Shown here: positions 9,101-62,719 of the stretch, one piece after another
Layout: each line of letters starts with the position of its first letter
Position numbering within the stretch: the stretch's first letter is position 1
DNA from: Romanomermis culicivorax
Taxonomy: Eukaryota > Nematoda > Enoplea > Mermithida > Mermithidae
Reading direction: 5' to 3'
Assembly (NCBI GenBank): GCA_963922205.1
Contig: CAWUHX010000367.1
Coordinates: 1 to 64,000, forward strand
DNA length: 64,000 bases
Position numbers and translations under genes: made by a program
Notes under the pieces: generated by a model
What the model was told of the DNA's origin: nothing
The model's input: only the letters and a program-made list of their open reading frames with translations
Databases searched by the model: none

Positions 9101-9339
9101 GCTTTTTGGGCCTCAATGAACCAACATTCATAGAAGCACATTCAAGTTTTAAATTTGGTCATCTTAACATCAAAGAAACAATAAAAAACTACAAATCCTC
9201 TCTTTCCTTAGAAGTAAAAGATGTGTAAACTGTGCAGTAAAAGATGTTGTAAACAGAATGTAAAGTGACCATATCTGTTGAATTCCCCATGGTCTAGAAC
9301 CCTTAACCCAAAAAATCGAAAAATACCTTTGTTTACAGG
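9101..9339 (-). repeat. Flanking part of the C/B composite repeat, interrupted by the LTR element
   Basis: Inverted copy of 53640-53815 (shared 'catcaaagaa' and 'gtaaaagatgt' blocks), then the start of the 97-bp minisatellite B in minus orientation (about 9255-9339). The minisatellite resumes at 18664 after the LTR retroelement, so the retroelement inserted into it. Confidence 0.7.
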
Positions 9340-10236
9340 TGTAATGTACCTGCTAAAGCAGTACTGTAAATATGTAGCATACTGTATGTGATAGACATTT
9401 ATTAGATATTATCTTATTTTCACATTTTATCGTCTCAAGGGTGTCTGGGATTCACACCCAAACATTCCTACAAAATTATGTGAAGTACTTTATTTTGATC
9501 CGTTCACACCCCGGTAGCCCAATTAAGATGCCCTAATTAATTTGCACAAACGGCAGCTGGTCCCCTAGAACCTACACTAAACTACACATTCCACAGCTAC
9601 CGTAATCCCCCGTAAAAATCGTAAACAACACCTGCACACAGTAAAATATGTAGAAGCCCCGCCAGACAGTAGTCTCAAGTGTAACGGTAGCGGCAGCCCC
9701 ATAAAACATGTGTATACAGAGAAACTGATACAGGAAGCATGCACAGAAGCACAGAGGTGTGGCCAAGCCCACCCTAGAAAGCAAGTGAAGCACGAGAAGC
9801 ATACAGTACCAGGAAAGCATTAGGAAGGCGTAACTAAGAAAGCATAAAAAGCGTAGCAGGAAGGGATGATTGGCGGAAGAAGATGGACAGAAGCTCGACC
9901 TCCCGCGACGCCCAGGGAGTGGCCAAAAACGTGGTATAAAAGAAGAAGCAAAGCATGATTTAGTTAGTTGTTAGATTGTTGTAATCGTTTCGTTTTTGAT
10001 CCGCGGCCGTTCCCTTTATTTGCAAGCAACCGTCTTCGAAAGCAATTAAACTGTGTCATATATTTTATTTGCAAGCAAACGCGCCGTCCATTTGTGTTAG
10101 TCGACGTTCAAGCGACCATCGATCATTCGTTGTATTCTCATATTATCGTCTCGCTGCGCCCCGTCCCATTATAGCCGTTCCCCCCGTAACGCCGTTGGTT
10201 GAAAGTAAAGTACCTCACACAAATCTGGTGGTTACA
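9340..10236 (+). repeat. 5' long terminal repeat
   Basis: TG...CA termini and a length identical to the 3' LTR. It contains a TATA-like box at 9935, and an ATTAAA signal near 10044 that could serve polyadenylation. Small open frames on both strands (one of 82 codons on minus) are conserved only because the LTR is repeated; they are not treated as genes. Confidence 0.95.
9935..9941 (+). promoter_or_regulatory. LTR TATA box (TATAAAA)
   Basis: TATAAAA lies 301 bp before the LTR end and is followed by a purine-rich stretch. The 3' LTR keeps the box (CATATAAAAG). This predicts that transcription starts near 9960-9970. Confidence 0.55.
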
Positions 10237-10241
10237 TATTT

Positions 10242-10259
10242 TGGTGACCGTACCGAACC
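10242..10259 (+). other. Putative primer-binding site
   Basis: Begins TGGTGACC five bases after the 5' LTR end, the usual position and TGG start of a tRNA primer site. I could not match the priming tRNA from the sequence alone. Confidence 0.5.
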
Positions 10260-10479
10260 GTTAACCACTGGAACTCCCTGCCCCCAATTAGGTGTACTCT
10301 TATCCGGGCATTTAGAAGCATTAGATAATACAGTAGTAATCATTTCCTACAGTAAGACAGTATTCGTAGAAAGCAAACTGGAAATCCCCTCCAACGAAAT
10401 ATTAAGCGATACATTTAAACGAATACAGCGTGAAGCAAAAATTGAAGCATTTAAGCAGAAATCCCAGCATAAACCAAGA

Positions 10480-11999
10480 ATGACCCACCAAACGCAAGAT
10501 CATTTAGGAGAAATCGTTAGAGAACAGATAAACGATTTATTTTCAGAACATTTTCATACCCTACGCACACAATTGAATCAGAATACAGTAAACCCTACCC
10601 TAATAGACGATCTAAGAACAGCAAACATTCGTAATAACATGGCAAATAATTTCTACGCGAAACCTACAGTATTCACAGGTGGCGTGACCCAACATTTTGG
10701 TGAATGGAACAAAAGATTAGAACAATTCATGGCACTCCAAGGCATGAAAGATACAGACGTACAGTTAAAGTTGGCATGTTTAGAAATTCATTTAGGAGGA
10801 GCCGCGTTAAATTCAAAAGTTTAGCCAATTCCAAAAACCCTCCCCACACATACGAGCAGTACAAAGTCGCATTACAGGCATTTTTCCCAAACAATAGAGA
10901 TAATGAGCTACATCAACAATTCTTACACGAAAGAAAACAAAAGCGTTCAGAAACAGTAACTGAATTCTTATTTGATCTAGAACATCTCGCAACCCTCGCC
11001 TACCCTAACTTTAACACAGACGCACGAGAAATGATCATAAAACCCCTCTTTGTAGAAGGCATACAAAACGAAATCAGGGAAGCAATTAAGTATAGAAGGT
11101 TTGCAACTCTAAAAGAAATGTCAGACGAAGCAGCCTACATTGAACAGCAAATCCTTAGAAATGAGTTAAAATCCAATGTCCTTCCATTTATACCCCCAAA
11201 ACCCGAACCCATCTTTTCTCTAACCAAAAACACAGACCAACAGGACCTTTTGCATCAGTTGGAACAACAAGTAAAAGATTTACAGTTGTAGATCAAACAA
11301 AAACCTCAATCCCCACAACAGAGTAGCTACAACAATTTCAGTAACAATACTTTCAGCAGGAATAATGCTTACAGGAACAATACCACCCCTAGGCAACCCA
11401 CATGCTTCCAGTGTGGACAAATTGGACATGTAGCTCGTAATTGTAAATCAGTAGGCACCCGGAAATCATGTGAAATTTGTTTTCGTAATAATCACAGTAC
11501 ACGTGATTGTAAAAGCCGATGCCTCCACTGCTCCCAAACAGGACATAGATCTGAGAACTGCCTTTCAAAACCCTACTCAAATTTTCAATGTTTTCTATGC
11601 AAGCAGAGAGGTCATACAAGTAGATACTGTCCAAATCAACAAAGTCGTAATATTCAAAATTGCATTGAGTACAGGCAACCCCAACCCCTAATGGACATTG
11701 ATGACCCTGCTTTCTACTCAACTTTACCCGCCATAACTAACGGCCCTCAGACTACTTTAGGAACTATAATGCCCACCACTCACTGCCGTAGTCAGGAGGA
11801 GTACGTCCTCGACCTGGATGTACCCGATTGGTGCGCCATGTCACCATCCCCCATGCCCGAAGCTGCCAAAATCGGAAAATCGCTGCCCACCATCCCAGCA
11901 GACTACAAAATCCTGTGCAAACAAGACACCAAATCGCCCACCGCCCCAGAAACACCTTCAAAACAGGCCGTAACCTTTTGTCCCTCTTCCACGACCTGA
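10480..11999 (+). pseudogene. gag: gag (capsid plus four CCHC zinc knuckles), broken
   Basis: Encodes the structural Gag protein of the retroelement. An ATG at 10480 begins a reading frame that runs to 10824 and covers the start of the Retrotrans_gag capsid region (FGEWNKRLEQFMALQ). The matching continuation is in another frame, to 11291 (TYEQYKVALQAFFP onward), so there is a frame change near 10805-10825. A TAG at 11289-11291 then interrupts the frame. Beyond it the same frame carries four CCHC knuckles of spacing C-x2-C-x4-H-x4-C: the first Cys codon is at 11403 and the last knuckle ends near 11628. The frame ends at 11999 after a Pro-rich tail. Four knuckles is more than the usual one or two. 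The frame may extend upstream into the LTR, so the true start is uncertain. The last part overlaps the env-like frame, which is open from 11828. Confidence 0.88.
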
Positions 12000-12049
12000 C
12001 CCCCGAACCCTACCGATTCCACCCCCGCCAAACACTCTTGCCGACCCCC

Positions 12050-13981
12050 ATGAGTAAGCAAATCCGAACCCCATCCCCTGACTCAACTTCTAAAGTTTTA
12101 CAGACTGTTCAGATTGTAAACCGGCCACCCCCTCAACACAACAACGCAAAACACCAACAGCCGCCACGCCAAACCGGCCAGAGCGAAAAATCACAGTGCC
12201 CCGCCGCATCCACTAAACCATTGTATTGGCCAATGTATTGCATATTTCTTTGTATAATAATCCCCACATCGTGTAGTGCCCAATTTCAGATCTGTGGAAC
12301 TTCATTGAGCGGTCACTCGGTCAGCATACCAAAACTTGTATCATGCATGCCCCCTTCCACAGTAGACAAACTGGTACAGACATTCGGAAAAATCTATATC
12401 CCCTCCACTAAGCCTCATATAACAGATGCATACAAATGCAGTGTTCACAAATGGAAAATTTGTACTAATACAGGATTTTTTGGCTCAAAAGGTATTGTCT
12501 TCGACCAAACCTAAATGCAAAATCTAACCCCACATGTTTGTAAGGTAATCATTATAGACAAAGAACACAACGGTCAAAAATTATACGAAACCCAACCAGG
12601 ATTTTGGTCAACAAACAACTCCCTAAGCATAGAATACACAGGGTGTTGTACAGACCACTGTACCTCGGTCACTAACGTCATCATAGAAATAGGACAAATA
12701 GCGTCTTGGAATGGAAAATCTATGACAGGTACATTAGGTGACCTGGGGTCATGCAAACCGACATCAGGTCATTGTGTCACAGCCGACGGATCCATTATCT
12801 GGAATGAAACAGCATTTTAAAACTTATGCCCCTTCGAATACAAAAATACACATCCCATAAAACTCACGCAAACCCACATGATAATAGAAGAGCTACAAGG
12901 TGCATTCTCTGTTAAAAACACACTCTTTTCGAACCCCAATTGCCCAGAAATCCAAGACAGCATTCTAACTGAACAAGGCATTATTGTACAATGGGACAAA
13001 AGCACACCACATCGTAACGCATTTCTAACCCCAAAAACCAACGAAACCCATACTACACTCTACGATTTTGATGATTTTGAACCCATTAACGTGAAACTAA
13101 ACTATCTAGCAGACAAAATCCAGGAATTCGAAATTCAAAATTTCAAAAATGTATGGAGTGAATTATGCAGACAGGCACAGCGTCACCTTGATCTCGTATG
13201 GCAAATTTTGCGCCTTGATGCAACCCTTGGAGCGCATGCATTTCTACAGCGAACCGACATCATAGCAGAATTCACAGGAGAAGCCCTCACCGTCTGGCCC
13301 TGTAAACAAGTAAACGCATCTAAAGTCTTCTACAACCATAAAATCAACCAAACATGCTACAAACTTTTACCCATTCTCGTAGGAACCGAACTCATGTTTT
13401 CGAATCCAGGAGGCAACGATTTGACCCCTTTTTCACAAATGGTTGACTGCCATCATATGCATGTAGCCCTTTACAAACAGAATAATACATGGGTCAGTGA
13501 AACAGGATCCCCGCACGTCACAAATTTACCCTTAGAAATTGTCTGGAACCAAAATTTCTCCCTTTTCCATTTTAATACACCCACCATTTTTCATGATCAA
13601 CTTGCAACTATTTCAACCAACTTACTCTTTTTGAAACAATACATTTACAAAACTCACACACTCGAAAACGTTGTTAAAAAACTCGTCAATTATACAGCCC
13701 AAATGTCTCTCAATTCCGATACAGTTCACAACATGATCTCAGGCACTGGCCAAGCACTTGGAAATACCCTCTCTGGCGCCGGTCAAGGCATAGAACATGT
13801 AATAACCGGTACCACCCAAAGTCTCACGGACAGATTAAACAATTTGCTCAAAGGACCCCTGCAAATCATTATCAATTTAGCGGTTATTACTGTAGTTATT
13901 GCAGGCGTCTTTTATTCTTTTCTCATTCTCCGGAAATATTTCCCTTCTCCAAAGCACCATGCTGCAACTGAACATGCATAG
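12050..13981 (+). pseudogene. Envelope-like viral glycoprotein gene, broken, located between gag and pol
   Basis: A single reading frame is open from 11828 to 13981 except for TAA stops at 12512-12514 and 12818-12820. Possible starts are ATGs at 12050 and 12233. The second gives a typical signal peptide (hydrophobic core CIFLCIIIP, then a small-residue cleavage region SCSAQ). A Cys-rich ectodomain follows, with several N-x-S/T sites. Near the C-terminus, from about 13855, come Gly/Ser/Thr-rich heptad-like sequence, a transmembrane helix (IIINLAVITVVIAGVFYSF) and a short basic tail. Signal peptide, Cys-rich ectodomain and C-terminal anchor define a type I membrane glycoprotein. The spacing of cysteines and the CY-x3-P motif remind me of glycoproteins of chuvirus-like RNA viruses, but this is inference from memory of the pattern. 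The same frame is open for another 45 codons after 13981. Confidence 0.75.
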
Positions 13982-14181
13982 GAAATACCATCAAACAACA
14001 GACATTTACATGAGACCATTCCCCCATCATTCGGCCATGCTCTTTTAGAATTAGCTAATTGTCGTGGGGCACAAACGCAGCAGAAATACGTCCTTGTCGA
14101 TATTGATACCCCCTGAACTCCTGCAATCGAACTCATTAATCAAATTCACCAATCTGCATCAAATATGCAAAAATATCAAAT

Positions 14182-14802
14182 ATGCAAAATGCATCAAATA
14201 AGCCACCCCAAAATGTACCTGAGAAACATACCCCTCATATCCCAATCACACTTAACGGAAAATTAATCACAAAAGGCATGATTGACACTGGTGCAGTCTA
14301 CTCACTCATTGATTCACGGATCGCTCAAATTTTACAGTTAGACATGAAACCCCCGCTAGTCCAAGCAAAAGCAGCAAATAATCTCCCAATTCACTTTGTA
14401 GGGACTACTTTTGTCACAGTGACAGCCCAAACAATCCAGGAAACAATCATGGTCCATGTCCAAAAAGATTGCACAGCAGACATCCTTCTAGGCAAAAACT
14501 TTCTCAGTCGACTTTCGGAATATACTATCAACAATCAGAAATCTCAGGTCAAATTTGGCAATGTCATACTACCTTGTGAGGGCCTAGAATACAGCCCACT
14601 TTCGACCCGTGGTGGAACCTATCTAGACGAAAAATTAGAATTACCACCCCATACAGTAACCGAATTTACTGTCCCTTGCCCAAATCGTACTTACAGGTCA
14701 AACAGCTTGAATTCACCCCGAAACCCAAACAGAATCCTAAAGTCCATTTCGCAGCTTGTGTCTCTGAAAATCAAAACAATCGCATACGCATATCAGTCCT
14801 AA
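14182..14802 (+). pseudogene. pol: pol N-terminus: retropepsin-like aspartic protease
   Basis: Aspartic protease of the retroelement, which matures Gag and Pol. The catalytic DTGA is at residues 35-38 from the ATG at 14182. The flap region and the second hydrophobic-hydrophobic-Gly element (ILLGKNFL) follow at the normal distance of about 70-80 residues. The frame then runs into non-homologous sequence. Reverse transcriptase continues in the frame that is open from 14676, so there is a frame change between 14676 and 14802. The region 13982-14181 holds no Gag-Pol junction, and pol is separated from gag by the env-like gene, so readthrough or frameshifting from gag could not normally express it. 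Confidence 0.85.
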
Positions 14803-17735
14803 ACACACAAGAAACAGCCCAAACTCTTTACCCTGGAACATGCATCGGTACAGTCTCCTGTTACATTCGAAAACAAAATGCTCCCGCTAACGTAACCCCC
14901 TCCATGCAAAACCACCCCAACCGTTTTGATACATTCACATGGTTAAAAGAAAACGTTAATTTAACCTCCAGTGACCTGACAGAAGCAGAAAAAACACAAC
15001 TCCTACGCGCCCTATCGAAGTATCCTACATTATATGCTAAATCCAAAATGGACGTAGGTAGAACCACCCTTGTTTCACATACAATTCACACCAATGGCTC
15101 CCAACCCGTACGTAGACAACTTTATCGGACTTCCCCAAAAGAAAAGCAAATCATACAAGCAGAAGTTGAGCAACTCGCAGCAGCAGGTGTCATAAGCCAG
15201 AGCAATTCTCCATGGTGTACCAACACAATTTTAGTCCCCAAAAAAGATGGAGGCCATCGTTTATGCATTGATTTTCGAGGCCTCAACAAAGTAACCAAAA
15301 AAGACACCTACCCCTTGCCCCGCATAGATGAAATTCTCGACACCCTGCATGGAATGAAATATTTTATGTCCCTTGACCAATCCAATGCCTATTATTCCAT
15401 TCCCATAGCACAAGCAGACAGAGAAAAAACGGCCTTTAATTGCTCAGCCGGCCAGTATCAATTCAATTACCTCCCCTTTGGTCTAACCAACGCCCCAGCT
15501 ACATTCCAAAGGTTAATGGATGTTATCCTTTCGGGACTCCAATGGAACACATGCCTTGTATATCTCGACGATGTTATGGTATTCGCAGACTCCCATGCCC
15601 AAATGCTGGAACGTTTAGACACTATTCTTGCCCGATTCTCACAAGCAGGCCTTAAACTAAATATACAAAAATGCAAATTCTGTCAGCCCCAAGTCGAATA
15701 CTTAGGCCACGTCATTTCTCAGCAAGGCATTTCACCAGACCCCCATAAAGTACAGGCCATCTGTGACATACCCACGCCCAAAAGCTCAAAAGAAGTTAAG
15801 TCATTCCTTGGCCTACCCTCCTATTATCGCAGATTCATCCCAAATTGCTCTCAAGTTTCTAGCCCACTCACATCACTACTCAAAAAGAATTCCGAATTTT
15901 CCTGGGGCCCTGAACAGCAAAACGCATTCACTAACCTAAAGGAATTACTCATTCATGCCCCAATACTGCAGCATCCCGATTTCACAAAACAGTTTATTCT
16001 GCAAACTGACGCCTCAAAACTCGGAATCGGCGCCATTCTCAGTCAGCTAGATAGTAAAGGTCAGGATCGCCCCATTGCTTTTGGGAGCCGCACATTTAAA
16101 CCCGCAGAACGCAACTACCCGATAACTGAGTTGGAAACCCTTGCAGTAGTTGAGTTTGTCAAGTATTTCCGCCCCTACCTTTTTCAACAACATGTTATCG
16201 TACACACTGACCATACAGCAGTTCAGGCAGTCTTACAAAAGGAAAACCCGTCCCCTCGCATTGCCCGTTGGGGATTAGCCCTTTCCAGTATTTAGCTAGA
16301 CATTCGACCTAAGAAAGGCACTGCTAACCACAATGCAGATGCTGTTTCCCGATTCCCCTCACAGACAGCAAAGCAATCCTTTGATATTGACCAATTAGAA
16401 ACCCGCCCAGAAATATCCACTATCAATTCGGTTTTGGAAGCTGAAGCAACTGAACAAGAAGAGCAACAGAAAAATTTCGCCGAACTTCAACGCACTGATC
16501 CAACTGTCAAAAGTATTTTAGCAAAACTCGCCCAAAAACACCCCCTTACTCTGATAAAATTCGCAGTGCATCAAAACATCCTCTTTAGTATAGTCGACAA
16601 ACAGACAAAACTATACATTCCCAAGTCACAAGTCCAGCATCTCATTGCCTCACACCATGACAGCAAATTCACAGGTCATTTTGCTGCCGGGAAAAGTTTA
16701 CACTTGCTCAGACAAAAATATTTTTGGCCCCAAATGAGCCGTGATATCAAACGTTACTGCAAAACTTGCCACCCATGCCAGACACAGAAAGCCCTCCGAC
16801 ACAAAATACATGCAAATCTCGTACCAATTCAGCCGACTGGCCCATTTGATAGAGTCGGTGTTGATTGCATGGGACCGTTACCCCTCACTGAAGACGGCAA
16901 CTGATTCATTGTCATTTTCATCGATTATTTCACAAAGTATGTAGAGGCATTCCTGACCCCTGACATCACTGCGGCCACTATCGCCAAATTATTCGTAACC
17001 AAAATTGTTTGCCGTCATGGGTCCCTAAAAATCATCCATTGTGATCGTGGCTCCGATTTTGTCTCCGATCTCTTCTCACGGATAACTAGCTTATGCAATA
17101 CTCAGAAAATTCACACCACTCCATATCATCCCATTGCCAATGGAGAAGTTGAGCGTTGCAACCAGACTTTAGCCACCCGTATCCGCATGTACATCAATTC
17201 AAATCACACTGATTGGGATACTTATCTCCTATATGCTGTTTTTTCGATCAACATCCATAAAAATGATAGCACTTCGTATCCCCCATTCGAATTACTCCAT
17301 GGTAGGCAAGCTAATCTGACGTCAGATGCAGCCTTAAACTTTTTCCCCACGTCCTACATGGTTGATCTAGATGATTACGCCCTTCATGTAAAATCACATT
17401 TTAGGGAAGCACTCTCAACCATGCAGAAAAGTTTACAAAAAGCTCAAGACCACTACACCCATCAGTATAACAAGCATGCTCAGAACATACATTACAAGGC
17501 AGGTGATCTTGTCCTTTACAAAAATCATTCGTGTAAACAAGGGCTGACTCCCAAATTCCTCCCTCGCCAAAATGGGCCCTATACAGTTACAAATTTCATG
17601 TACCCCAATGTTACACTTAAAGACCCCCACAAGAATATCACATTTACGGTGCATGTAAACGAGACAACCCCTTTCTACCCTCGGAAAACAACTATCGAAT
17701 TTACCCCCACCCCTCCTAACCCTCGGAAGCCTTGA
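14676..17735 (+). pseudogene. pol: pol: reverse transcriptase, RNase H and integrase, with two in-frame stops
   Basis: One frame carries the polymerase polyprotein. Reverse transcriptase: PWCTNTILVPKKDG, LDQSNAYYSIPI, LPFGLTNAPATFQ and the catalytic YLDD (codons from 15561). RNase H: LQTDASKLGIGAIL, ELETLAVV and HTDHTAVQ. A TAG at 16293-16295 falls just before the end of RNase H, whose N-x-ADAVSR motif follows in the same frame. Integrase: an H2C2 zinc finger (HH...H...CKTCHPC), then the DDE core with Asp in VDCMGPLP, Asp in HCDRGSDF and Glu in EVERCNQ, 35 residues after the second Asp. A TGA at 16902-16904 cuts the core. The C-terminus has a GPY-type module (NGPYTV) and ends at 17735, just before the polypurine tract. 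Domains and order fit Ty3/gypsy. Confidence 0.95.
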
Positions 17736-17752
17736 ACGAGGACGTTCAACTC

Positions 17753-17766
17753 GGGAAGGAGGGAAA
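17753..17766 (+). promoter_or_regulatory. Polypurine tract
   Basis: GGGAAGGAGGGAAA ends directly at the first base of the 3' LTR, the required position for plus-strand priming. Confidence 0.85.
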
Positions 17767-18663
17767 TGTAACGTACCTGCTAAAGCAGTACTGTAAATAT
17801 GTAGCATACTGTATGTGATAGACATTTATTAGATATTATTTTATTTTCACATTTTATCGTCTCAAGGGTGTCTGGGATTCACACCCAAACATTCCTACAA
17901 AATTACGTGAAGTACTTTATTTTGATCCGTTCACACCCCGGTAGCCCAATTAAGATGCCCTAATTAATTTGCACAAACGGCAGCTGGTCCCCTAGAACCT
18001 ACACTAAACTACACATTCCACAGCTACTGTAATCCCCCGTAAAAGTCGTAAACAACACCTGCACACAGTAAAATACGTAGAAGCCCCGCCAGACAGTAGT
18101 CTCAAGTGTAACGGTAGCGGCGGCCCCATAAAACATGTGTATACAGAGAAACCAATACAGGAAGCATGCACAGAAGCACAGAGGTGTGGCCAAGCCCACC
18201 GTAGAAAGCAAGCGAAGCACGAGAAGCATACAGTACCAGGAAAGCATTAGGAAGGCGTAACTAAGAAAGCATAAAAAGCGTAGCAGGAAGCGATGATTGG
18301 TGGAAGAAGATGGACAGAAGCTCGACCTCCCGTGACGCCCAGGGAGTGGCCAAAAACGTCATATAAAAGAAGAAGCAAAGCATGATTTAGTTAGTTGTTA
18401 GATTGTTGTAATCGTTTCGTTTTTGATCCGCGGCCATTCCCTTTATTTGCAAGCAACCGTCTTCGAAAGCAATTAAACCGTGTCGTATATTTTATTTGCA
18501 AGCAAACGCGCCGTCCATTTGTGTTAGTCGACGTTCAAGCGACCGTCGATCATTCATTGTATTCTCGTATTATCGTCTCGCCGCGCCCCGTCCCGTTATA
18601 GCGGTTCCTGCCGTAACGCCGTTGGTTGAAAGTAAAGTACCTCACACAAATCTGGTCGTTACA
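17767..18663 (+). repeat. 3' long terminal repeat
   Basis: Exactly 897 bp, as in the 5' LTR. Differences are scattered substitutions, mostly transitions, with no indel noticed. Confidence 0.95.
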
Positions 18664-18960
18664 CAGGAAGGGCGATTTTTTGTGTGAAGGGACTGCATCC
18701 ATTAATCCACATTGGTCAGAAAATCCTTCCACCAAAAATTCGTGGAAATACGCTTGTTTAAACCCGGAATACTCTTCTGTGTAAAGTGACCTCATCTGTT
18801 GAATTCCCTGCAGTCAAAAACTCGTCCCACCAAAAAATCACAGAAATACGCATGTTTTTACACCCGAGATGATTTTTGTGTAGAGTGACCGCATCCATTG
18901 AATTCTCCATGATCGAAAACTCCTTCCACCAAAAAATCACAAAAATAAGCTAGTTTAACG
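18664..18960 (-). repeat. Minisatellite B, minus orientation, right side of the retroelement insertion
   Basis: Three roughly 97-bp units readable on the minus strand as TTTTTGGTGGAAGGA...GTCACTTTACACA...GTAAACAAG. They continue the array broken at 9339. The plus-orientation array is at 52698-53645. Confidence 0.8.
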
Positions 18961-30200: not shown

Positions 30201-33200
30201 TACTTCGTTTGAGCTTTTATAGTTATTTGAAAATCATTATGGTTCCGCAGTCAGTAATTTACCGAAAATTCGAGAAAACGAAAATTTTTGAATTCACTAC
30301 AGTAAGAACATAAAAAATCAGGCTTTTTCAGCACGTTTTCGTCTACACTGTGTGAAAACGACTAAAAATTCTTTCTTTTTACCATACTGTGGGTTGGTTT
30401 TTTGTGCACTGAGTTGTGTGCACGGTGCACGAATTGGGTCAAAAAGTTTGTGCACAGTGAGGACAAATCCGCTCCTTCATAACATGAATTCACGTGATGC
30501 TCACATTTGTACAGAAAAAATAATAAAAAAGCAACTAAAAACCCTAAATTGCCTAGAAATTCTGCTGGCGAAATCTCTGTGATCCCTCAAAGATAGACAG
30601 CATTCGATTTATCCTTCCCTATGGTGCAAAGCGCCAGAGAAAATTTCGAGTCATACTCTAGGACGCTATTAAATGAATCTTTTTGAGACTTATTACATCA
30701 TACAAGATTCAATTTTTCAGTCTAGAATGATGTTGAAACTTAGGCAATGATATGATGTTTTCAATCATCTAACCAGATAGAAGATCAGCGTGAAGTCAAG
30801 GATGTTCAACGAATTCAGGCAAAACAACAGGAATGATAAAAAAATTCTGGAGCGAAGCGCCAAAAATTTCTACGGATTTAGATATTAGAGCGCTAAAAAA
30901 AGGACATTTGCCAACATATATTTCCCGGATAAGCGGTATAGTTTTATAGTCAATTAAATCATTTTCCATACAAGAACAAAGTGTAAAAATCATATAGAGA
31001 GCATGCAGCTTGAAAATCCGCATAATATGAAAATCGACTTTTGCACCGTGCATAAAACGTCTTAAAAAATTTGTGCACGAGCTCCAAAAACTCTGCTCAA
31101 TGCACAAAAAGCCCTGCCTGTAAGACCTCCGGTCGGTTGGGGGAGGCAAGACCGAAATTCGTGAGTGGCATACCCATTTTTCTAAAATCTTGGTGGTCTC
31201 TAAGACAGTCGAAAAAGCCGAAGATGCCTTCAAAAAAGCCGAAAAATGCTATTTCTTGTTCAATTTTTTCGAGTTGGGTGGAGGGTCCTAACATTTAGGT
31301 ATTACTGTCCGAGGGTCCCTTCAACCCCGTCCCAATTACAGGTATGCTTATTCCACACGGAAATGTTTTCCGTTCCAAGTTAAAACCACGTAAAAAATGC
31401 GTAGTCTTCTCGTTTCCCAATAGAAAAGTTTATGTCCGCAGGGTTTGGAGAATTTTGAACCCGCGCGCCGAACAGTTTTCGGATTTCGATATTTTTGAAT
31501 GGTATAAAATTAACCTTTTCAATATTTAACCAAAAAATTGAGAAACAATTCTTCAATTTAGAATGATGTTCAGACCTGAGCAATGGGCTGATGCCTTCTA
31601 TCGCCAGAAAAATCAACTAGAAATGAAAGATGTTTCTTAAATTCGAAAATATCAACAAAAATCGTATTGAATATTTTGGAAATGAAAAAAATACAATATA
31701 AATTCAAAAATCAGATATAGAAATTTCGATTATTCCACTGAGAGAACTTCTACCATCGCATAGCACCGATGTTTGAAACATTTCTTAAACGCAATAAATT
31801 TATGTTCAGAATATTCAAAAAATTTTCATAGCCAGGAAAAAGATTCTATGGAAACTAATCGTCGTTTTCAAACAATGTATCGAAGATTACTTGGTAAAGA
31901 GTGCGATGAGACATTTAAGATGATTAACACTATTAAAGTTAGCTTTGTTAGAAGTGAAGACGACATGCTAACGACGTATCTGAGCTAGATTATATCGAAT
32001 AATGATTATAATCGTCACCAGAAAATTTTGAGATTTAGACCTCCTAAAATGCACTTTAATTCATCTTTTCGATCTCGAAACCTCACTTTTTTGCCATTTT
32101 CGAAAAAGTCCAAATTTTTTTCGCATTCCAGAATTTTTTCGTCAAAAGCACCGATTTGTATAAAAATAGTGCCAAGAAATAATCGAATTATGCAACAATC
32201 AGCAACCTATAGCTTCACCACAGATGCTATACATAATTCAATAATGAGGTGCATATCTCAAAACTCTTTGCGAAATTTCAGGCTGCTAAAAAATTCCCGG
32301 TTACTACTAGGTTAGTGGCTACCCTGTATTTCAAGCGTCAAGAGTAACCGACCTTAGAGTACATTAGAATTCCAAGTTGAAACCTCGACCATTTTGTTAC
32401 ATTTACTTCGACAGGGTCTTCGTTAGCGTTATCTGTAGTGGGAAGGTGGAATCGCATTTCCATCAACGAAACCGGACAATCGTCATTCTGATGAAACTCG
32501 ACGGCAACTTCATTTTTACCAGCCGTACAATTGCTCACATTCTGTAATGGAACTTCGAAACAAGATTGATCTTCAACATGGAATTCCATTGAATTGCCTT
32601 AAAAAGTGAAAAATTCAAACGAAACCTAAAATAAGATTTACAACATTTTGGAAATTTTAGTACCATCAAATTTGGCCACACCGTGATTCCAGCCACGAAC
32701 GCTAAGATCTTCTTGCAGAAATTCTTTTGACCAATTCTTTTTCACGAACGATTTAAGTCGTTCAATGTCCTTTAAAAAGCACTTAAATTTTCGTGAACAA
32801 AGAATATGTTTACCAAATCGAGGTTTGAAGTGGGCAAGTGGAAAAATTTGGATGCAAAATTTTTTCTTGTTAAACGAGAAAAAGCTTAGTTTTTTCAAGA
32901 TCTGGTGTTTCCAGATTCAATCTTTATAAACGCTTCCTGCCTGAAATTAAGGGAAAATTTTGAACTCACGTTTTCCGTAAAACCACCGAATCGATAAAGC
33001 GACCCGTTCTTAGTTTTGATTCGAACACCTGGACATCCATTCAAACGCGTCGACGAGCAAACTTCGACGTCCGAAGCTTGTACTTGCTCCATACGACCGC
33101 TCTTAGTGTTCTTGAAGACGACATTTTGATCGGAAAACTTTATGCGACCTGCATTCTTAAAAGCCGAGGAATAAAGAGATGAATTAGAAGTTTCAAGAGC

Positions 33201-33436
33201 TATATTTTTCTGTAATTCATTTTTATTCGTCCTGATTTCTCTTCCTTCCGTCATTTTGAGCTGATAATTCATTGTTCTTAATTCTTCGCAGAAACAGAAA
33301 AATCCGTGAAATAATAGCAATAAACTTGATTCGATAGAGCAAATAGACTAGACTTTTAGGCGAAATGAACAGTTCTTACCATATGACCCATGTTTTCCAT
33401 TGAGGCATCATTGAACTCCAAAAATAAGTCCGTCAT
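24227..33436 (-). CDS. SSRP1: SSRP1, HMG-box subunit of the FACT histone chaperone (16 exons, complete)
   Basis: With Spt16, SSRP1 forms FACT, which loosens and rebuilds nucleosomes during transcription and replication in the nucleus. Exons (minus strand): 33436-33380, 33155-32970, 32769-32664, 32597-32407, 29941-29847, 27446-27311, 27251-27019, 26966-26745, 26680-26611, 26246-26123, 26065-25928, 25762-25659, 25600-25403, 24938-24832, 24463-24337, 24277-24227. All phases agree and the total is 2145 nt, 714 residues, as in animal SSRP1. Evidence by region: an N-terminal Pob3-type domain ([20 protein letters not shown]), then the structure-recognition and PH-like middle domains ([36 protein letters not shown]), an acidic Glu/Asp stretch (exons 10-12), one HMG box ([42 protein letters not shown]) and a Ser/Lys/Asp tail. 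A few donors are non-consensus (gtttgt, gttggt, gttagg, gttagt). Introns 4 and 5 (about 2.4 kb each) hold transposons. Confidence 0.95.
27500..27860. repeat. Dispersed repeat with 'ggtaggggtaa' motifs in SSRP1 intron 5
   Basis: Three GTAGGGGTAA blocks and an 'attaggcacccagtgatcaattttaaggactt' segment. That segment recurs inverted at 37500-37570 with the same neighbouring 'ggggtattacccc' sequence. Confidence 0.55.
28010..28300 (+). pseudogene. hAT transposase C-terminal fragment in SSRP1 intron 5
   Basis: The dimerisation-region signature of hAT transposases is recognisable ([20 protein letters not shown]), followed by tandem TGA codons near 28172 and, in a shifted frame, by [21 protein letters not shown], which resembles the end of the zinc-finger/hAT-derived ZNF862-like proteins. 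Orientation is opposite to SSRP1. Stops and the frame change show it is dead. Its sequence does not resemble the hAT gene at 50256-52633. Confidence 0.65.
28761..28910 (+). repeat. Three tandem 50-bp units upstream of a heat-shock-type promoter
   Basis: Exact 50-bp spacing at 28761, 28811 and 28861, sharing cagtatgattacatgacatg-like core, ATG-rich. Placed just before the heat shock elements, they could be an enhancer array. Confidence 0.75.
28936..28955 (+). promoter_or_regulatory. Heat shock element 1 (four alternating nGAAn/nTTCn units)
   Basis: GAA at 28937, TTC at 28942, GAA at 28947 and TTC at 28952: four pentamers with exact 5-bp spacing and alternating orientation, the consensus for heat shock factor trimers. 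Confidence 0.75.
28991..29005 (+). promoter_or_regulatory. Heat shock element 2 (three units)
   Basis: TTC at 28992, GAA at 28997 and TTC at 29002 with exact 5-bp spacing; a further TTC at 29012 is in phase after one mismatched unit. It lies about 20 bp before the TATA box. Confidence 0.75.
29022..29030 (+). promoter_or_regulatory. TATA box after the heat shock elements
   Basis: CTATATAAG at the expected distance from the heat shock elements. Transcription would start near 29050 and run rightward. Confidence 0.6.
29539..29735. mobile_element. Family F MITE copy in SSRP1 intron 5
   Basis: Right end TCGGACCTCTTAC(T)GGTAT as in other F copies, with 'ctatacccaaag', 'aactcgaaaaaatttgg' and 'ttcgacttttttgggg' body blocks in order. 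The short open frames over it are not genes. Confidence 0.65.
30610..30900. repeat. Family E palindrome remnants in SSRP1 intron 4
   Basis: GGTGCAAAGCGCCAGAG near 30630 and GGAGCGAAGCGCC near 30843, each followed by the characteristic 'aaatttcgag' or 'aaatttct' flank and an 'acgctatt/agcgctaaa' block. Confidence 0.55.
31115..31345. mobile_element. Family F MITE copy in SSRP1 intron 4
   Basis: Inverted relative to 40576-40794: GCCTGTAAGACCTCCGGTCGG at the left, CCCAATTACAGGTATG at the right, with G-run, 'cgaaaaagccga' and 'ttttttcgagttggg' body blocks. The open frames on both strands here follow the repeat. Confidence 0.65.
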
Positions 33437-40802: not shown

Positions 40803-42452
40803 AGTTATAAACGGCGGCGGGAAGCGCCGGAAAATTTTGAGATTTGAACCTCCTAAAATGCAACAAAATGCATCTTTCCAATATGAAGACCCCAAATTTT
40901 TCTTCCACATTTGTGGAAAGACCTCAAAAATTTTTTCTACATTCCAGATTTTTTTTCCACATTATAGTGCAAATGTGGAAAAAAGTGTGTCGCAGAGCCG
41001 CTCTTCAAGAGAACGCACTCTCCGGAGCGTCTCTCGGTCACAGAAAATTTTGTGGAATCAATTTCCTCTCTTTCGCCTCTCCGAGAGCCAAGACCACCGC
41101 TTTTTTCCTCAAATAGGATCTTTTGAGGAAAAAAATTTGGAAATAAGGAAAAAATTTTTGGGTATGATTCTCATTGTGGAAAAAAATTTGGGGAATTCAA
41201 AATCGAAAAGATGCGTTTTGGTGCACTTTAAAAAATCAAAATCTTAAAATTATTCGGCGCTTCGCGCCGGTCAGGGGTATAATAATCATTATTTTCTATA
41301 CATAAGGCGCGGCCGTTAGCATATCTACTTCCACTTACTAGTTAATTATCAACAGTTTCTATCAATCGAGTTAGCTCATCTCATTTTCTAATCGTTAACG
41401 GTCAGTATTTCGCTGAAAAAAACAATTTTTCATCAATTCTCTCAATTTTTTCTCTCGACGCCAAAAAATTTATGGGGGAATTCCCCCATAAATTTTTTTA
41501 GAATAAAATTTTCAGCAACATTATTGTACTTACACATCACAATTTCCAAATAAAATTATTGTATTTACATACTTTTCGTCAAACATAGAATTGAGCCACT
41601 AATCCAAGCACCTATAAACTAACTGAAAATAAGTCGTCTTTACTGCAAAAATTAATTAATTTTTATCCAGTAAATTCAAAAATTTTTTGGAAAATTCCCC
41701 CCTTTTTTGAAAATCTTGGATACGGGTATGCTCGACGCTTGGAATTTTTATAACATTTTTAACATGAACTTTTGGGTTTATTGAAAATGGAAATTGAAGA
41801 CATCATTCTAGACTGTGATTTTAGAACTTCTATTCACGAAAATATCCGTTGGAGAGATTTATTTTATAGCGTTTTAGAATACAAAAACTGAAAAATTTTT
41901 CCGGGGCTTCGCGCCGGAATGGGGAACAAATCATACTTCATCAGTCGGATTTTAATTTATTTCCCAGCGTGAATTTTCTCAATTTTTTCCTAATTTTTGC
42001 AGGTTTCTGCATCCAAAAGCATCAAAATGCTTGGGTATGCTCTTAGAATGCATAAAAAAGCACCCGTAGCACTGTTTTTTCTGCACAGTGCAGACTTTTT
42101 AGGTTTCGTGCAGAATTTTTTGGTGATTTCTGCATCGGTGCCGAATTTTTTGAGTCGTGTGTTTGATCACATTGGATATCGAAAAGATGCATTTTGGTGC
42201 ATTTTAGAAGGTCATAATCTCAAAAATTTTCGGCGCTTCGCGCCGGTTATAACTTAAATGAGCATTATTATTTATTTTCCAGCTCAAGTGCAGCTTCTAG
42301 CATGTCTACCTTCACATATCATTTAATCTTTAATAGTTTTCATTATCTTAAACGTATTATCTCATGTTTTAATTGGTAATCTTCAATATTTTATCTTGAT
42401 ATTTAATAAAGATTCACATTTTTTCCCTGACACATTTTTTTGAGAAAGATCA
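40803..42452. repeat. Family E cluster with several palindromes
   Basis: Palindromes at about 40814 (GCGGGAAGCGCCGG), 41255-41270 (CGGCGCTTCGCGCCGG), about 41900 (GGGGCTTCGCGCCGG) and 42231-42246 (CGGCGCTTCGCGCCGG). The conserved flank appears in both orientations (about 40850 and 41200), giving head-to-head units. The 220-codon frame crossing 40585-41247 is repeat. Confidence 0.7.
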
Positions 42453-43709
42453 ATAAGGTTTCCCATTCTAAGCTCCTTCTCAAACTTTCTAAATATGGTC
42501 TCTCTGGTCCCCTTTTAAGCTGGATATCAAATTTTCTTAAGAATAGATTTCAAAGGGTCAAAAAAACAAAAAAAAACTCCCTATCATCTCAGCTCAAAGT
42601 GTCTAGTGGTGTGTCCCAAGGTAGTGTATTAGGTCCAAGTTTGTTTCTTTTGTACATAAATGACATTATTGACAATATCAAAAGTAAAATTTTTCTTTTT
42701 ACAGATGATCTAAAAATTTTCAATGTATCAACAAATTTTATGATTCTTCAACAAGACCTTGATACTCTTTCAAATTGGTCCACTGCTTGGCAATTACCTA
42801 TATGTACTACAAAGAGTTATGTCTTGTATTTAGGTGCAAAAAACCCATCGTGTCAATATACACTTTGTTACCAACATCTCCCATCAAACGCAAGTTATGT
42901 TAAAGATTTGGGAATTCTTATATCTCCTAATATGAAGTTTAAAGAACACTATAGATACATAGTGAAAAATGCCTATAATAGGTCTACTTTAATTTTCAAG
43001 TCTTTCGTCTCCCGTGAGAAAAATACTCTAGCAAAGGCTTTCGTTACTTATGTACGTCCAATATTAGAATACTGTAGTTCAGTATGAAATCCACATTTTT
43101 TAGCAGACATAAGCTACATCGAAAATGTTCAACGTAGATTTACCAGAAAGATTTTTGGTCATAAATCCGGTTTGTCCTATGAAGACAGACTTCAAAGGCT
43201 AGGTCTACGCAAGCTTGATATTCGTAGATTAGAATCTGGCCTCTCTACCATGTATAACATAATCCACAAAAAAAACAATTCTAAATCCTGATGACTTTTT
43301 CTGTATAAACAACAACAATACGCGTCTTAATCATGATCTAAGATTGACAATAAAGTCAGTTCATACTACTGCTTGCCAGTTTGATTTTTTTAACCGTTAT
43401 ATTAATGTCTGGAACTCTTTATCCTTTGATATCGTTAATTCTCCCAGTTTGCACACTTTCAAAGAAAAAATTAAACTTCTAAACTTTGATAATCGAATTG
43501 GGGGGTGTATGTAACTTGTTACTTTTCAAGTAACCTTTGCACCCTATTGCTGCATGATTTTTCTATTTCTTAAAATATTTACATTTCTTGCGAGTCGATT
43601 TACTAATCTTATTCTTTATATGACATTATATTATGTATTTCACTTTGCATTTTTCTTTCATTTTGTTTTGTGTGACAGCAATAAATATTTTTCATTTCAT
43701 TTCATTTCA
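42453..43709 (+). pseudogene. 5'-truncated LINE reverse transcriptase (Jockey/CR1-like)
   Basis: Starts abruptly within RT at VSHSKLLLKLSKYGLSG, after family E sequence, as expected of 5'-truncated target-primed insertion. RT motifs: GVSQGSVLGPSLFLLYINDI and FTDD (family consensus is FADD, so a substitution lies next to the catalytic pair). A TGA at about 43085 interrupts the frame; it resumes with the conserved ENVQRRFTRKIFG and YEDRLQRLGLRKLDIRRLE, with a frame change near 43276. The 3' end is GTGTGACAGCAATAAATATTT plus a (CATTT)n tail. Not functional. Confidence 0.85.
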
Positions 43710-60263: not shown

Positions 60264-62719
60264 TTAAGATCCCAAATAAATGAACAAAAGCCAGTAAAGC
60301 ACATTGAATAACAAAAAAATCACGGGAAACATTGTGCGGGCATATTTATCCACATCGCTGGATTGGAATTTCTCGGATGGTGTGCTGAAGCCTACACGAT
60401 CATAATCATTTCGACTGACAGGTGCTGAAGACTTTTTGGCCGATAGTAATCCGTCATCGTATCTCTGAAAATGCACAACGATGTAGGATTTTTCATCAGA
60501 AAATAATCCAGACAATCAATGGAATAAAAATTCATAAACTACTGCATTCAATAACCTATAGTCTGTTTTTTATAAAATGCCACTAAAATGAAAAATCACA
60601 CAAATATTTGGTGACTTATAAATCGCCTACATGAAGCTTTTGCAATAAAATTTTTCACTCAAAAAATTTCTAAGTTCCAGTTAAGTGTCGTCACAAAATT
60701 TTCGTTCCATATGACACACGGCTTGGCAGAAAATGCTGAAAATATAAAATAGTACTTGCTTTCCGGATGCATTATTTGGAAGCATTTTGTGAAAAACAGA
60801 CTATAGTTCAGTGGTCAAAATTTCTCGAGTAGCAATGTTCAGGTATCGACGCAGTTAAGTATGACGTTTTCTCAATGATTTTGGTTTTCCTCGTTCTCAT
60901 GAAGCAATTTATTGTTTTTCTACAGTATAAAGTTTTCCACCAAATGGAAATTAGGTACCATTAAACCTACTTTTTGGTTTCTGCTTCGTCTGTCTTATTA
61001 AATTAAATGGACTACACCTGTTTTTAATAAAATACCTGTAAATTGAAAAATGAGAAAATCTAATTACCGTATTCAAAGTCGTTTACACAAAGCGTGCTTA
61101 ATAATATTTTTGACACAAAAAATAGTAGTGGTTATTTGAGTAATGTTCACAAATTTCCAGTCCTATGCAACACAGTTTAGCAGGAAAAGGTAGGAACTTG
61201 CTTTCTACCCGTAAGTTTAATAGATGAATTGGAAAGCAAGAGATCCTATAAATTTGCCCAGAAAATTGACGTTTTTGGTCTCTAGCTGAAAAATGTGCCT
61301 TTTCAGTCTTCGATTTCCCCAGATTTTCATTTTTATCAGAGGCCATTCATACGAGAAGTACAAGAAAAAATCAGAAAAATTCCTGACTTTTTTTCGTTTC
61401 CAAGAAAATTTAAAACAAAATTTGGCTAAATTTCCATCAAAGTCTGCAAAAGAATTAAACTGCAAAAGGCGGGATATCTGGACCTAAATTTAACATTCTT
61501 CTATGTAGTCCAAAACTACTGGGGCCGGTTGTTGCAATAAACGAGATAATCGGAAACTTTTTTATATGTTTTGTGCGAAAAAGTTGGCGATTATCTCGAG
61601 CTCGCGATCTTTCTGTTTATTGCAACCGCAACCAGCCACACGAAAGTTTATGAGCCGAAATTTTGCCAACTCGAATATATCACAGACGAATGATCGGAGA
61701 GGTTCGTTGTCAAATCGCAGATTCTAGGGCATTTTTAAATTCTGAAATCTCAATGTCGAAAAATGTCAACCAGAGTAGTCTGTAAAATGTAAAATACGAC
61801 TGTACTACTTGCTTTCCGAGGTTTAACTTCTTAGAGGCATTCCAAGAAAACTACGGAAGAAATGAATGAATTTGATAAAGTCCATAATCTATCAATAAAT
61901 TTAATGTGAAATATGAATTTCAAATTTTGCAAAGAAGTTAGGACAACGTAACTTTTGCTCAAAATAATTTTCCGCAAAGCAGATAAAGTGAAGAATTAGT
62001 TCACTTTTTCTGATCTACGTGTTATACAAATTGATGACGAAAAACATCAATTGCCCAAAATACGGTACAGTAAAGTGAAAATTTATTGTAGCCACCATAT
62101 ATGACTGTATTTATTGTTTATAGGGTACATAATAATGGCACGGAATGTGGTGCAATTGAAAGAAATTATGAGTCACTATAAGGAAGGTATAAGTAAGGTC
62201 ACATTGAATTTATGAACATCCCCTGAAAGTATTGTAACTGCGAATATATTTAAAGTCATACTGTAACTGTAATTTTCCTTTTCGTCAAATTATTAGCTGC
62301 TCTGTCCGAGGAATCTTGACTACTGCAATAAATTCCTGCGACCACATAGTTCACTTTTTGCGGCAACGGTGAAATCCTACGCTTTTGTTTCGTGGCTTTT
62401 TCTCCGACTATCAAATAACTGATCAAAGCGTATTCCATCAACGCACCAAAAACCATAAAATAACAAACGACTAGATAAATGTCCACCGCTTTGGCGTAAC
62501 CGACTTTGGGCATCTGCTCGCTGGTCAACGAAGTTAGTGTGGTCATGGTCAAAATGGCTGTTATGCAAAGAGTAACTCGAGCCGGCGCCGATTCCCTATC
62601 TATCCAAAACGAAACCCACGAAGTGGCCACAACAAAAACACTCGGCTGGTAGATTTGAAGGTAATAGTATCGGATGGACCGGATGAATTTAAATTTGCAC
62701 GATAATCGCGAATAATTAC
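60264..62719 (-). CDS. Cys-loop ligand-gated anion channel subunit (GABA-A/glycine-receptor type), 3' part
   Basis: Pentameric neurotransmitter-gated channel subunit in the plasma membrane. Exon 62719-62262 begins at a 'tttttcag' acceptor in phase 1 and encodes the (G)NYSRL stretch before TM1, TM1 (YYYLQIYQPSVFVVATSWVSFW), the M2 pore (PARVTLCITAILTMTTLTSL) and TM3 (KAVDIYLVVCYFMVFGALMEYAL). The PAR at the inner mouth of M2 is the anion-selective signature. A donor ACA|gtatga in phase 0 is my choice; AAA|gtgaac after PLPQ is the alternative. Exon 60464-60264, from a 'ttttcag' acceptor in phase 0, supplies the end of the M3-M4 loop and TM4 (DVDKYARTMFPVIFLLFNVLYW) and stops four residues after it. 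The cytoplasmic loop is short. Ligand class (GABA, glutamate, pH, histamine) cannot be decided without the extracellular exons. Confidence 0.88.
60559..60803 (-). mobile_element. MITE family A, complete 245-bp copy in the channel intron
   Basis: TAGTCTGTTTTTT ... AAAAACAGACTA, exactly 245 bp like the copy at 57965, flanked by TA, in the opposite orientation. Confidence 0.85.
61012..61240 (-). mobile_element. MITE family A, diverged copy
   Basis: Retains CCTGTTTTTAATAAAAT, 'aaattgaaaaatga', 'ttccagtcctatg' and 'gcaggaaa..gtaggaacttgctttc' in family order. Confidence 0.5.
61241..62255. other. Remainder of the channel intron
   Basis: A MITE A terminal fragment at about 61795-61860. 61517-61640 has 'gttgcaataaacgagataatcggaaac' mirrored by 'ggcgattatctcgagctcg...gtttattgcaac', an imperfect inverted repeat of about 110 bp. 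No exon recognised. Confidence 0.45.

What the first reader, a model, noticed from the sequence alone, without database searches (positions are those of the whole stretch)
9340..18663. LTR retroelement with gag-env-pol gene order
Seen: one element bounded by matching 897-bp LTRs, a polypurine tract and a CAGG target duplication, with an envelope-like membrane glycoprotein frame (12050-13981) lying between gag (to 11999) and pol (from 14182). Known: retroviruses, errantiviruses and the other env-bearing gypsy and BEL elements I know of carry env after pol. Inference: the glycoprotein was captured at a new position. This forces pol to be expressed without gag readthrough, for example from a spliced RNA as foamy viruses do. 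I know of no described lineage with this order.
Basis: partly seen in the sequence, partly recalled or inferred. Interest (0 to 1): 0.88.

Follow-up and report, generated by a model that had tools for sequence, protein, structure and literature searches.

The report
Retroelement with envelope inside its polyprotein
A repeated virus-like element in an animal genome carries an RNA-virus-type envelope gene in the middle of its coding region, and in related copies gag, envelope and pol follow one another in one reading frame, an arrangement I found no description of.

Summary
The element is real: 897-bp LTRs (869/897 identical), CAGG duplication, polypurine tract, Ty3-like RT. The middle frame is a class III-type fusion glycoprotein (Pfam Monjiviricetes_fusion, E 1.3e-18). 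Gag-env-pol order is a family trait: uninterrupted in 13 of 22 other copies and in 9 of 20 further loci chosen by LTR alone. Six other copies have their own 4-bp duplications. One copy of a second family (env 57%, RT 64% amino-acid identity) keeps the order. All 22 other copies lack its late-gag frame change, and the 13 colinear ones lack its 35-nt extra stretch before pol. Natural, unaltered frames run from gag zinc knuckles through a signal peptide into env (798 aa), and from env through its membrane helix into protease (561 aa). One copy keeps one phase from mid-gag to the integrase end. Best reading: one Gag-Env-Pol polyprotein; its translation is inferred. Host unidentified. The closest survey (eLife 108449) could not be read.

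The parts
9336..9339 (.). 5' target site duplication CAGG (pair at 18664-18667)
9340..10236 (+). 5' LTR, TGTAA...TTACA
   Evidence: 869/897 identical to the 3' LTR
10242..10249 (+). candidate primer binding site TGGTGACC (fits the 3' end of tRNA-Trp by recall; not tested)
   Evidence: identical in 8 of 11 aligned rows including the window; one change in C42; C22 and C114 not alignable there
10480..11962 (+). gag; ATG at 10480 in 10 of 11 aligned rows; frame broken in this copy at about 10.7-10.8 kb, by a stop ending at 11291, and by a one-base frame change near 11.96 kb
11400..11633 (+). gag zinc knuckles (CCHC)
   Evidence: Pfam PF00098 E 1.1e-9; four CCHC motifs in the relative L070
11963..12232 (+). 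linker from gag to env, open in the joint frame in other copies
   Evidence: 3.0 stops per 1000 codons, 17 of 22 copies without a stop; pN/pS 0.49 against 0.89 and 0.90
12233..12280 (+). internal signal-peptide-like stretch, ATG at 12233 in 15 of 15 copies listed
12281..13978 (+). envelope glycoprotein; Pfam match 13040-13708; membrane helix about 13865-13924; in-frame stops at 12512 and 12818 in this copy
   Evidence: PF24664 E 1.3e-18; helix; stops
13979..14241 (+). env tail running into pol; this copy has stops at 13979 and 14114 and a 35-nt extra stretch near 14155-14190 absent from 13 of 13 colinear copies
14242..14511 (+). retropepsin-like protease
   Evidence: PF13975 E 7e-9
15234..16286 (+). 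reverse transcriptase (15234-15716) and RNase H (15903-16286)
   Evidence: PF00078 E 6.7e-39, PF17919 E 4.4e-38, PF17917 E 1.9e-37; Ty3 RT best solved relative
16617..17735 (+). integrase (H2C2 16617-16793, core 16911-17132) to the pol stop
   Evidence: PF17921 E 1.6e-20, PF00665 E 1.3e-6; last frame ends at 17732 in 5 of 5 copies looked at
17753..17766 (+). polypurine tract
   Evidence: same tract seen beside the 3' LTR in other copies
17767..18663 (+). 3' LTR
18664..18667 (.). 3' target site duplication CAGG

Best explanation
The window holds a decayed copy of a Ty3/gypsy-like retroelement lineage that took a mononegavirus-type (chuvirus/bornavirus-like, class III) fusion glycoprotein into the middle of a gag-pol frame. 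The lineage encodes one Gag-Env-Pol frame from about ATG 10480 to the stop at 17735. I infer that the full-length RNA is translated as one chain: Gag stays in the cytosol, an internal signal peptide sends the glycoprotein into the secretory path, its membrane helix brings the chain back, and protease-RT-integrase hang from the env tail in the cytosol until the element's protease frees them. That is topologically like the internal signal sequences of flavivirus and alphavirus polyproteins (recalled). Shown: order, shared frame, purifying selection, signal-peptide-like and membrane stretches. Inferred: translation as one chain, processing, fusion activity, viral origin of env.
For: Order in 13 of 22 copies over 11.7-14.69 kb and 9 of 20 loci chosen by LTR alone; own 4-bp duplications in 6 other copies. 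All 22 other copies lack the window's late-gag frame change; 13 of 13 colinear copies lack its 35-nt stretch before pol. Natural frames: L070 798 aa with four CCHC knuckles, signal peptide, env N part; L041 561 aa with PF24664 E 1.3e-18, membrane helix, protease E 3.3e-7; L007 424 aa likewise. C203 keeps one genomic phase from 10854 to 17732 with four stops. Stop density in the gag-env linker 3.0 per 1000 codons, as in env (4.4), controls 13.4 and 64.3; 17 of 22 copies stop-free there; 15 of 18 stop-free from env tail to pol. Linker pN/pS 0.49 (0.36-0.69) against 0.89 and 0.90. In 13 colinear copies 4 of 5 shared indels are multiples of three against 2 of 20 single ones (p 0.0055). One copy of a second family keeps the order, and its main env and protease frames share a phase.
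Against: No RNA or protein data. No copy was seen with the whole frame unbroken, and I did not look for one. Only 2 of 10 copies keep one phase over long runs (C203 from 10854; C42 in most frames from 10248 to 15936); in C203 the first part of gag is in another phase. 12 of 22 copies have further frame-breaking indels near the gag-env join; one such (-1 at 11846-11847) recurs in 3 copies, another (-1 at 13043) in 2. Selection in the linker alone from 12011 on is weak (0.65, 0.42-1.00) and in the env tail modest (0.60 against 0.73 and 1.14). In the second family the first env part and RT sit in a different phase from gag and main env. The single-sequence fold of env was useless (pLDDT 39).
Confidence: 0.68

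Rival explanations
1. Spliced expression: a leader donor (after 10351) joins an acceptor before env (after 12103), giving an RNA that starts at the conserved ATG 12233; or an intron 12054-14048 removes env and leaves an in-frame gag-pol. Env would still be fused to pol in the first case.
For: ATG 12233 in 15 of 15 copies listed; GTAAG at 12054-12058 nearly invariant in 23 rows; the 12054-14048 pair would keep the frame.
Against: Motif scores weak. The donor block is no more conserved than many others. The acceptor before 14049 is not specially conserved. A proximity search for env-less gag-pol copies found 0, but it was one exact pattern. Two deletion copies have template-switch-like junctions, not GT-AG.
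Confidence: 0.22
2. The glycoprotein is a private insertion or assembly error in one copy (the finding's own refuting case).
For: None found.
Against: 39 other loci match across the gag-env join at 87-91% (40 of 930 candidates scored); 22 of 42 loci read are colinear over gag-env-pol (13 of 22, 9 of 20), and own duplications were read for six of them.
Confidence: 0.01
3. Env is carried as an in-frame passenger that no longer serves entry, for example as a structural part of the polyprotein.
For: No functional data; in-frame position would let it hitch-hike.
Against: pN/pS 0.17-0.24 in three env thirds over 14 sequences and 0.35 over 22 copies, no weaker than protease (0.60) or gag 3' end (0.34); signal peptide, membrane helix and cysteine-rich ectodomain kept.
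Confidence: 0.15
4. Gag and env are joined by a programmed -1 frameshift, as the window's overlapping frames (11792-11999) suggest.
For: Frames overlap in the window.
Against: The overlap comes from a frame change absent in 22 of 22 other copies.
Confidence: 0.03

Closest known systems
Atlas virus and relatives, hookworm Belpaoviridae (PMC9094657; passages)
   Same: LTR element with a single polyprotein that includes an envelope captured from an RNA virus; 9 such elements with complete Gag-Pol-Env polyproteins reported there.
   Different: Order Gag-Pol-Env, BEL/Pao pol, phlebovirus-like class II env. Here the order is Gag-Env-Pol, Ty3-like pol, class III-type env.
Anakin, mosquito BEL/Pao with chuvirus glycoprotein (PMC7642597; passages)
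   Same: Same kind of glycoprotein (chuvirus-like) inside LTR elements.
   Different: BEL/Pao, not Ty3-like; its env position was not stated in the passages I saw, which place env downstream of the polyprotein for Roo, Tas and Cer-7.
Errantiviruses and env-carrying gypsy elements across metazoans (PMC13172572, passages; Chary and Hayashi 2025, eLife 108449, not held, not read)
   Same: Ty3/gypsy elements with env, some with type III fusion glycoproteins.
   Different: Order gag-pol-env in the classical members (recalled). Whether the unread survey holds a gag-env-pol element is unknown to me.
Cer1 of C. elegans (PMC10309623; passages)
   Same: Single gag-pol frame without a stop between gag and pol.
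   Different: No glycoprotein in the middle; its extra protein CERV comes from a spliced RNA.
Jingchuvirales / Mono-Chu glycoprotein EVEs of arthropods and ants (PMC10084718, PMC6540820; passages)
   Same: Same type of glycoprotein in many copies per genome, near gypsy fragments in Hymenoptera.
   Different: Those papers read them as virus-derived insertions; PMC10084718 found no clear capture by gypsy elements.

Membership tests
Metaviridae (Ty3/gypsy) | RT/RNase H closest to Ty3 | tested here: met
   Best solved relatives are Ty3 (E 3.3e-90 and 3.7e-90), ahead of caulimovirus-, foamy- and gammaretrovirus-type chains (family names partly recalled). No RT tree was built.
Metaviridae (Ty3/gypsy) | Domain order PR-RT-RNase H-IN | tested here: met
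Metaviridae (Ty3/gypsy) | LTRs TG..CA and 4-6 bp duplication | tested here: met
   TGTAA...TTACA and 4 bp in the window and 6 other copies
Errantivirus | env after pol | tested here: not met
   env between gag and pol; pol frame ends 31 bases before the 3' LTR
Errantivirus | Baculovirus F-like (class I) env | tested here: not met
   Best and only gathering-level match of the env piece is Monjiviricetes_fusion
Anakin / BEL-Pao with chuvirus env | BEL/Pao pol | tested here: not met
   RT matches Ty3; no BEL/Pao-specific Pfam match in the pol pieces
Class III (Monjiviricetes) fusion glycoproteins | Profile match above the curated cut-off | tested here: met
   66.8 bits against 27 in window and in L041; 44.9 and 62.5 in L007 and L004; 55.5 in the second family
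Class III (Monjiviricetes) fusion glycoproteins | Class III fold | tested here: inconclusive
   Single-sequence model pLDDT 39; no PDB sequence match
Foamy-virus-like expression | pol from its own spliced RNA | not testable with these tools
   No RNA data; motif scan weak

The most novel reading that the evidence does not exclude
A lineage of Ty3-like endogenous retroviruses makes Gag, Env and Pol as one chain that crosses the membrane: Gag and Pol cytosolic, a class III fusogen lumenal between them. Every Env trimer would then be made with protease and polymerase on its tail, coupling entry protein and enzymes one to one. The many ant-specific 'Mono-Chu glycoprotein' EVEs (PMC6540820) may be env genes of such elements rather than relics of an unknown RNA virus; host identity was not tested here.
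Probability: 0.55. Interest if true: 0.92.

Novelty: new variant of a known kind. Interest (0 to 1): 0.78.

Why it matters
Retroviruses and the env-bearing LTR elements I know of keep env last, made from a spliced RNA or, in Atlas virus, as the end of the chain. An env in the middle of the chain, kept in frame and under selection, shows that a membrane protein can be taken up between gag and pol without giving up gag-pol continuity. It makes testable how Pol reaches particles, how Env-to-Gag ratios are set, and whether multi-copy 'viral glycoprotein fossils' are really retroelement env genes.

Tried and rejected
Private insertion: rejected. Programmed frameshift between gag and env: rejected for the family. 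Splicing seen through reverse-transcribed spliced copies: the two internally deleted copies (C55 10600|13820, C16 11003|13823) share a CCTACCC / TACCACCC context and no GT-AG; read as template switching; exact proximity pattern 0 hits. Conserved donor at 12054: not exceptional against other conserved runs. Fold of env from one sequence: uninformative. IMG/VR scan for relatives of env: none. PDB by sequence: none for env. Global protein search: switched off. Host naming: no named comparison was possible; an exon like a GABA-A receptor and an SSRP1-like exon fit an animal. Genome-wide search with the env protein, needed for counts and further divergent families, did not complete. Literature: phrases for a gag-env-pol order or polyprotein gave 0 papers; other searches listed none whose title, abstract start or looked-up passages describe it; the library lacks most subscription papers and bioRxiv.

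Limits of counts: the genome search scores only the best 40 candidates (of 2891 for the LTR piece; of 930 for the gag-env join). The first 20 copies were picked by the gag-env join, so they contain it by choice; the 20 loci and C143, C182, C55 were picked by LTR alone. Of those 23 LTR-picked loci 11 are colinear over gag-env-pol, 1 until 13645, 2 internally deleted, and 9 have no same-family internal sequence at that place (solo or 3' LTRs; one of them holds the second family).
Full report
1. The element. The window holds an LTR element at 9340-18663 with 897-bp LTRs that are 869/897 identical, TGTAA...TTACA ends, a CAGG duplication and a polypurine tract. Pfam places gag zinc knuckles (PF00098 E 1.1e-9), a viral fusion glycoprotein (PF24664 Monjiviricetes_fusion, E 1.3e-18, weaker BDV_G and Glycoprotein_B matches), an aspartyl protease, RT, RNase H and integrase in that order on the + strand. 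The RT is closest by sequence to Ty3 among solved structures. The pol frame ends at 17735, 31 bases before the 3' LTR. Gag, env and pol of this copy are all damaged: the env frame has in-frame stops at 12512 and 12818, gag changes frame and has stops, pol changes frame and has stops.

2. Not private. A 601-nt probe over the gag-env join matches 39 other loci of the same 359-Mb assembly at 87-91%; 38 of them cover at least positions 2-601 and one starts at 40 (only 40 of 930 candidates were scored). I read 20 of these from 11.7 to 14.7 kb, plus two full-length pairs found by LTR (C143, C182). 13 of the 22 are colinear without interruption through gag, env and protease; L013 and L016 are colinear to about 14.28 kb; the other seven have deletions, insertions or end inside env. 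Of 10 copies whose ends I fetched, 6 could be read at both ends, and all 6 have 4-bp duplications that differ from each other and from the window's: GAAT, GTAT, GTGT, GTTC, GAGC, GCAG; the other four were unreadable at one end at least. Because these were picked by the join, I also read 20 loci picked by the LTR alone: 9 colinear over about 11.43-14.49 kb, one colinear to 13645, one with an internal deletion, one holding a different family, 8 without internal sequence there (solo or 3' LTRs).

3. One frame, not three. In all 22 other copies the frame change that ends gag at 11999 in the window is absent; 10 of the 22 have no other frame-breaking indel between 11.7 and 12.29 kb apart from an alignment-edge gap in one, and 12 have changes of their own. 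The stop at 13979 is in 4 of 23 aligned rows and that at 14114 in 2; the 35-nt stretch that puts the window's pol out of the env frame is absent from 13 of 13 colinear copies. Unaltered natural frames show both joins: L070 (C203) has one 798-aa frame with four CCHC knuckles, a linker, a signal-peptide-like stretch and the first part of env; L041 (C143) has one 561-aa frame with the fusion-glycoprotein match (E 1.3e-18), a strong membrane helix and the protease match (E 3.3e-7); L007 (C42) has a 424-aa frame with the same pair (E 5.4e-12 and 5.3e-7). By genomic coordinates alone, C203 stays in one phase from 10854 to 17732, gag capsid part to the end of integrase, broken by four stops but no frame change; C42 stays in one phase in most frames from 10248 to 15936. 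The other 8 of 10 copies change phase somewhere, at differing places. The last frame ends at 17732 in 5 of 5 copies looked at.

4. Selection. In 22 copies the gag-env linker has 6 stops in 1968 codons, env 54 in 12188; control frames of the linker have 13.4 and 64.3 per 1000. 17 of 22 copies are stop-free in the linker and no stop there is shared; from env tail to pol 15 of 18 covered copies are stop-free. pN/pS in frame and in the two control frames: gag 3' end 0.34 / 1.05 / 1.16; linker 0.49 / 0.89 / 0.90; env 0.35 / 0.95 / 1.00; env tail 0.60 / 0.73 / 1.14; protease 0.60 / 0.89 / 0.91. With 13 colinear copies plus the window, env gives 0.17-0.24 by thirds. The linker from 12011 on alone is weak (0.65, interval 0.42-1.00). 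In 13 colinear copies 4 of 5 shared indels are multiples of three against 2 of 20 single ones. Against this, a -1 near 11846-11847 recurs in 3 of 22 copies and a -1 at 13043 in 2 of 13.

5. A second family. Next to one LTR locus, in the opposite direction, lies a divergent relative (C116, about 267.6-272.6 kb) in the order gag zinc-knuckle region (54% over 48 aa), env (44%, 49% and 57% in three pieces), protease (44%), RT (64%). Pfam confirms its fusion glycoprotein (E 3.4e-15), protease (E 8.6e-7) and RT (E 1.5e-28); its gag frame matches no Pfam family and rests on tblastn alone. The gag frame, main env frame and env-tail-protease frame share one genomic phase; the first env part and RT are in another. 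It is one copy, its LTRs were not examined, so it supports the order more firmly than the frame.

6. How it most likely works. The simplest reading is a Gag-Env-Pol polyprotein with an internal signal peptide (ATG 12233 present in 15 of 15 copies listed) and a membrane helix, so that Gag and Pol would face the cytosol and the fusogen the lumen. Whether the host signal peptidase and the element's protease cut it, and whether env fuses membranes, is inference. Splicing cannot be excluded: there is a conserved leader GTAAG after 10351 and another at 12054, but scores are weak, the block at 12054 is not exceptional, and deleted copies show template-switch-like junctions rather than GT-AG. The in-frame continuity means that pol need not be separated from gag for expression, contrary to the finding.

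7. Place among known things. Env capture by LTR elements is known: errantiviruses, Anakin (chuvirus glycoprotein in BEL/Pao, PMC7642597, passages), and Atlas virus, which makes a single Gag-Pol-Env polyprotein (PMC9094657, passages). Type III fusion glycoproteins in mosquito gypsy elements are mentioned in PMC13172572 (passages). A 2023 survey found Jingchuvirales glycoproteins near gypsy fragments in Hymenoptera but no clear capture by gypsy (PMC10084718, passages). What differs here is the order Gag-Env-Pol with continuity of frame in a Ty3-like element. Phrase searches for that order or polyprotein found no paper. The most relevant survey, Chary and Hayashi 2025 (eLife 108449), is not held and could contain it. 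I file it as a new variant of a known kind.

8. Age and state. LTR mismatches: window 28 of 897; other copies from 32 of 889 (C203) to 73 of 898 (C347). Copies are old to middle-aged and decayed; I did not look for, or pick, an intact one.

Noticed in passing
window 18775-18857 and 18874-18956: Two copies (78% alike) of an 83-nt repeat just outside the 3' LTR.
   Followed up: no
window 42431-43087 (+): Separate open frame of 218 aa with a partial reverse transcriptase match (PF00078, E 1.5e-14), no solved relative.
   Followed up: partly
window 62256-62732 (-): Exon-like frame matching GABA-A receptor / ligand-gated channel membrane region.
   Followed up: partly
window 32895-33347 (-): Frame matching the N-terminal PH domain of SSRP1/POB3 (FACT complex).
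   Followed up: partly
L043 (C55) and L098 (C16): Two copies with different internal deletions that end at nearly the same place (13820, 13823) in a shared TACC..CCC context: a template-switch hot spot making env-less, largely gag-less elements.
   Followed up: partly
L025/L026 (C60): 231 bases before the 5' LTR match the 231 bases just after the 3' LTR at 93.5%; unexplained.
   Followed up: no
L001-L020, L041, L042: Several stop positions shared between copies lie at CpG sites, as if the copies had been methylated.
   Followed up: no
LTRs of L021-L049: The first 460 bases of the LTR find 97% matches elsewhere, while whole LTRs of other copies align at about 79-90% with a variable 3' part: LTR 3' halves may be exchanged between subfamilies.
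   Followed up: no
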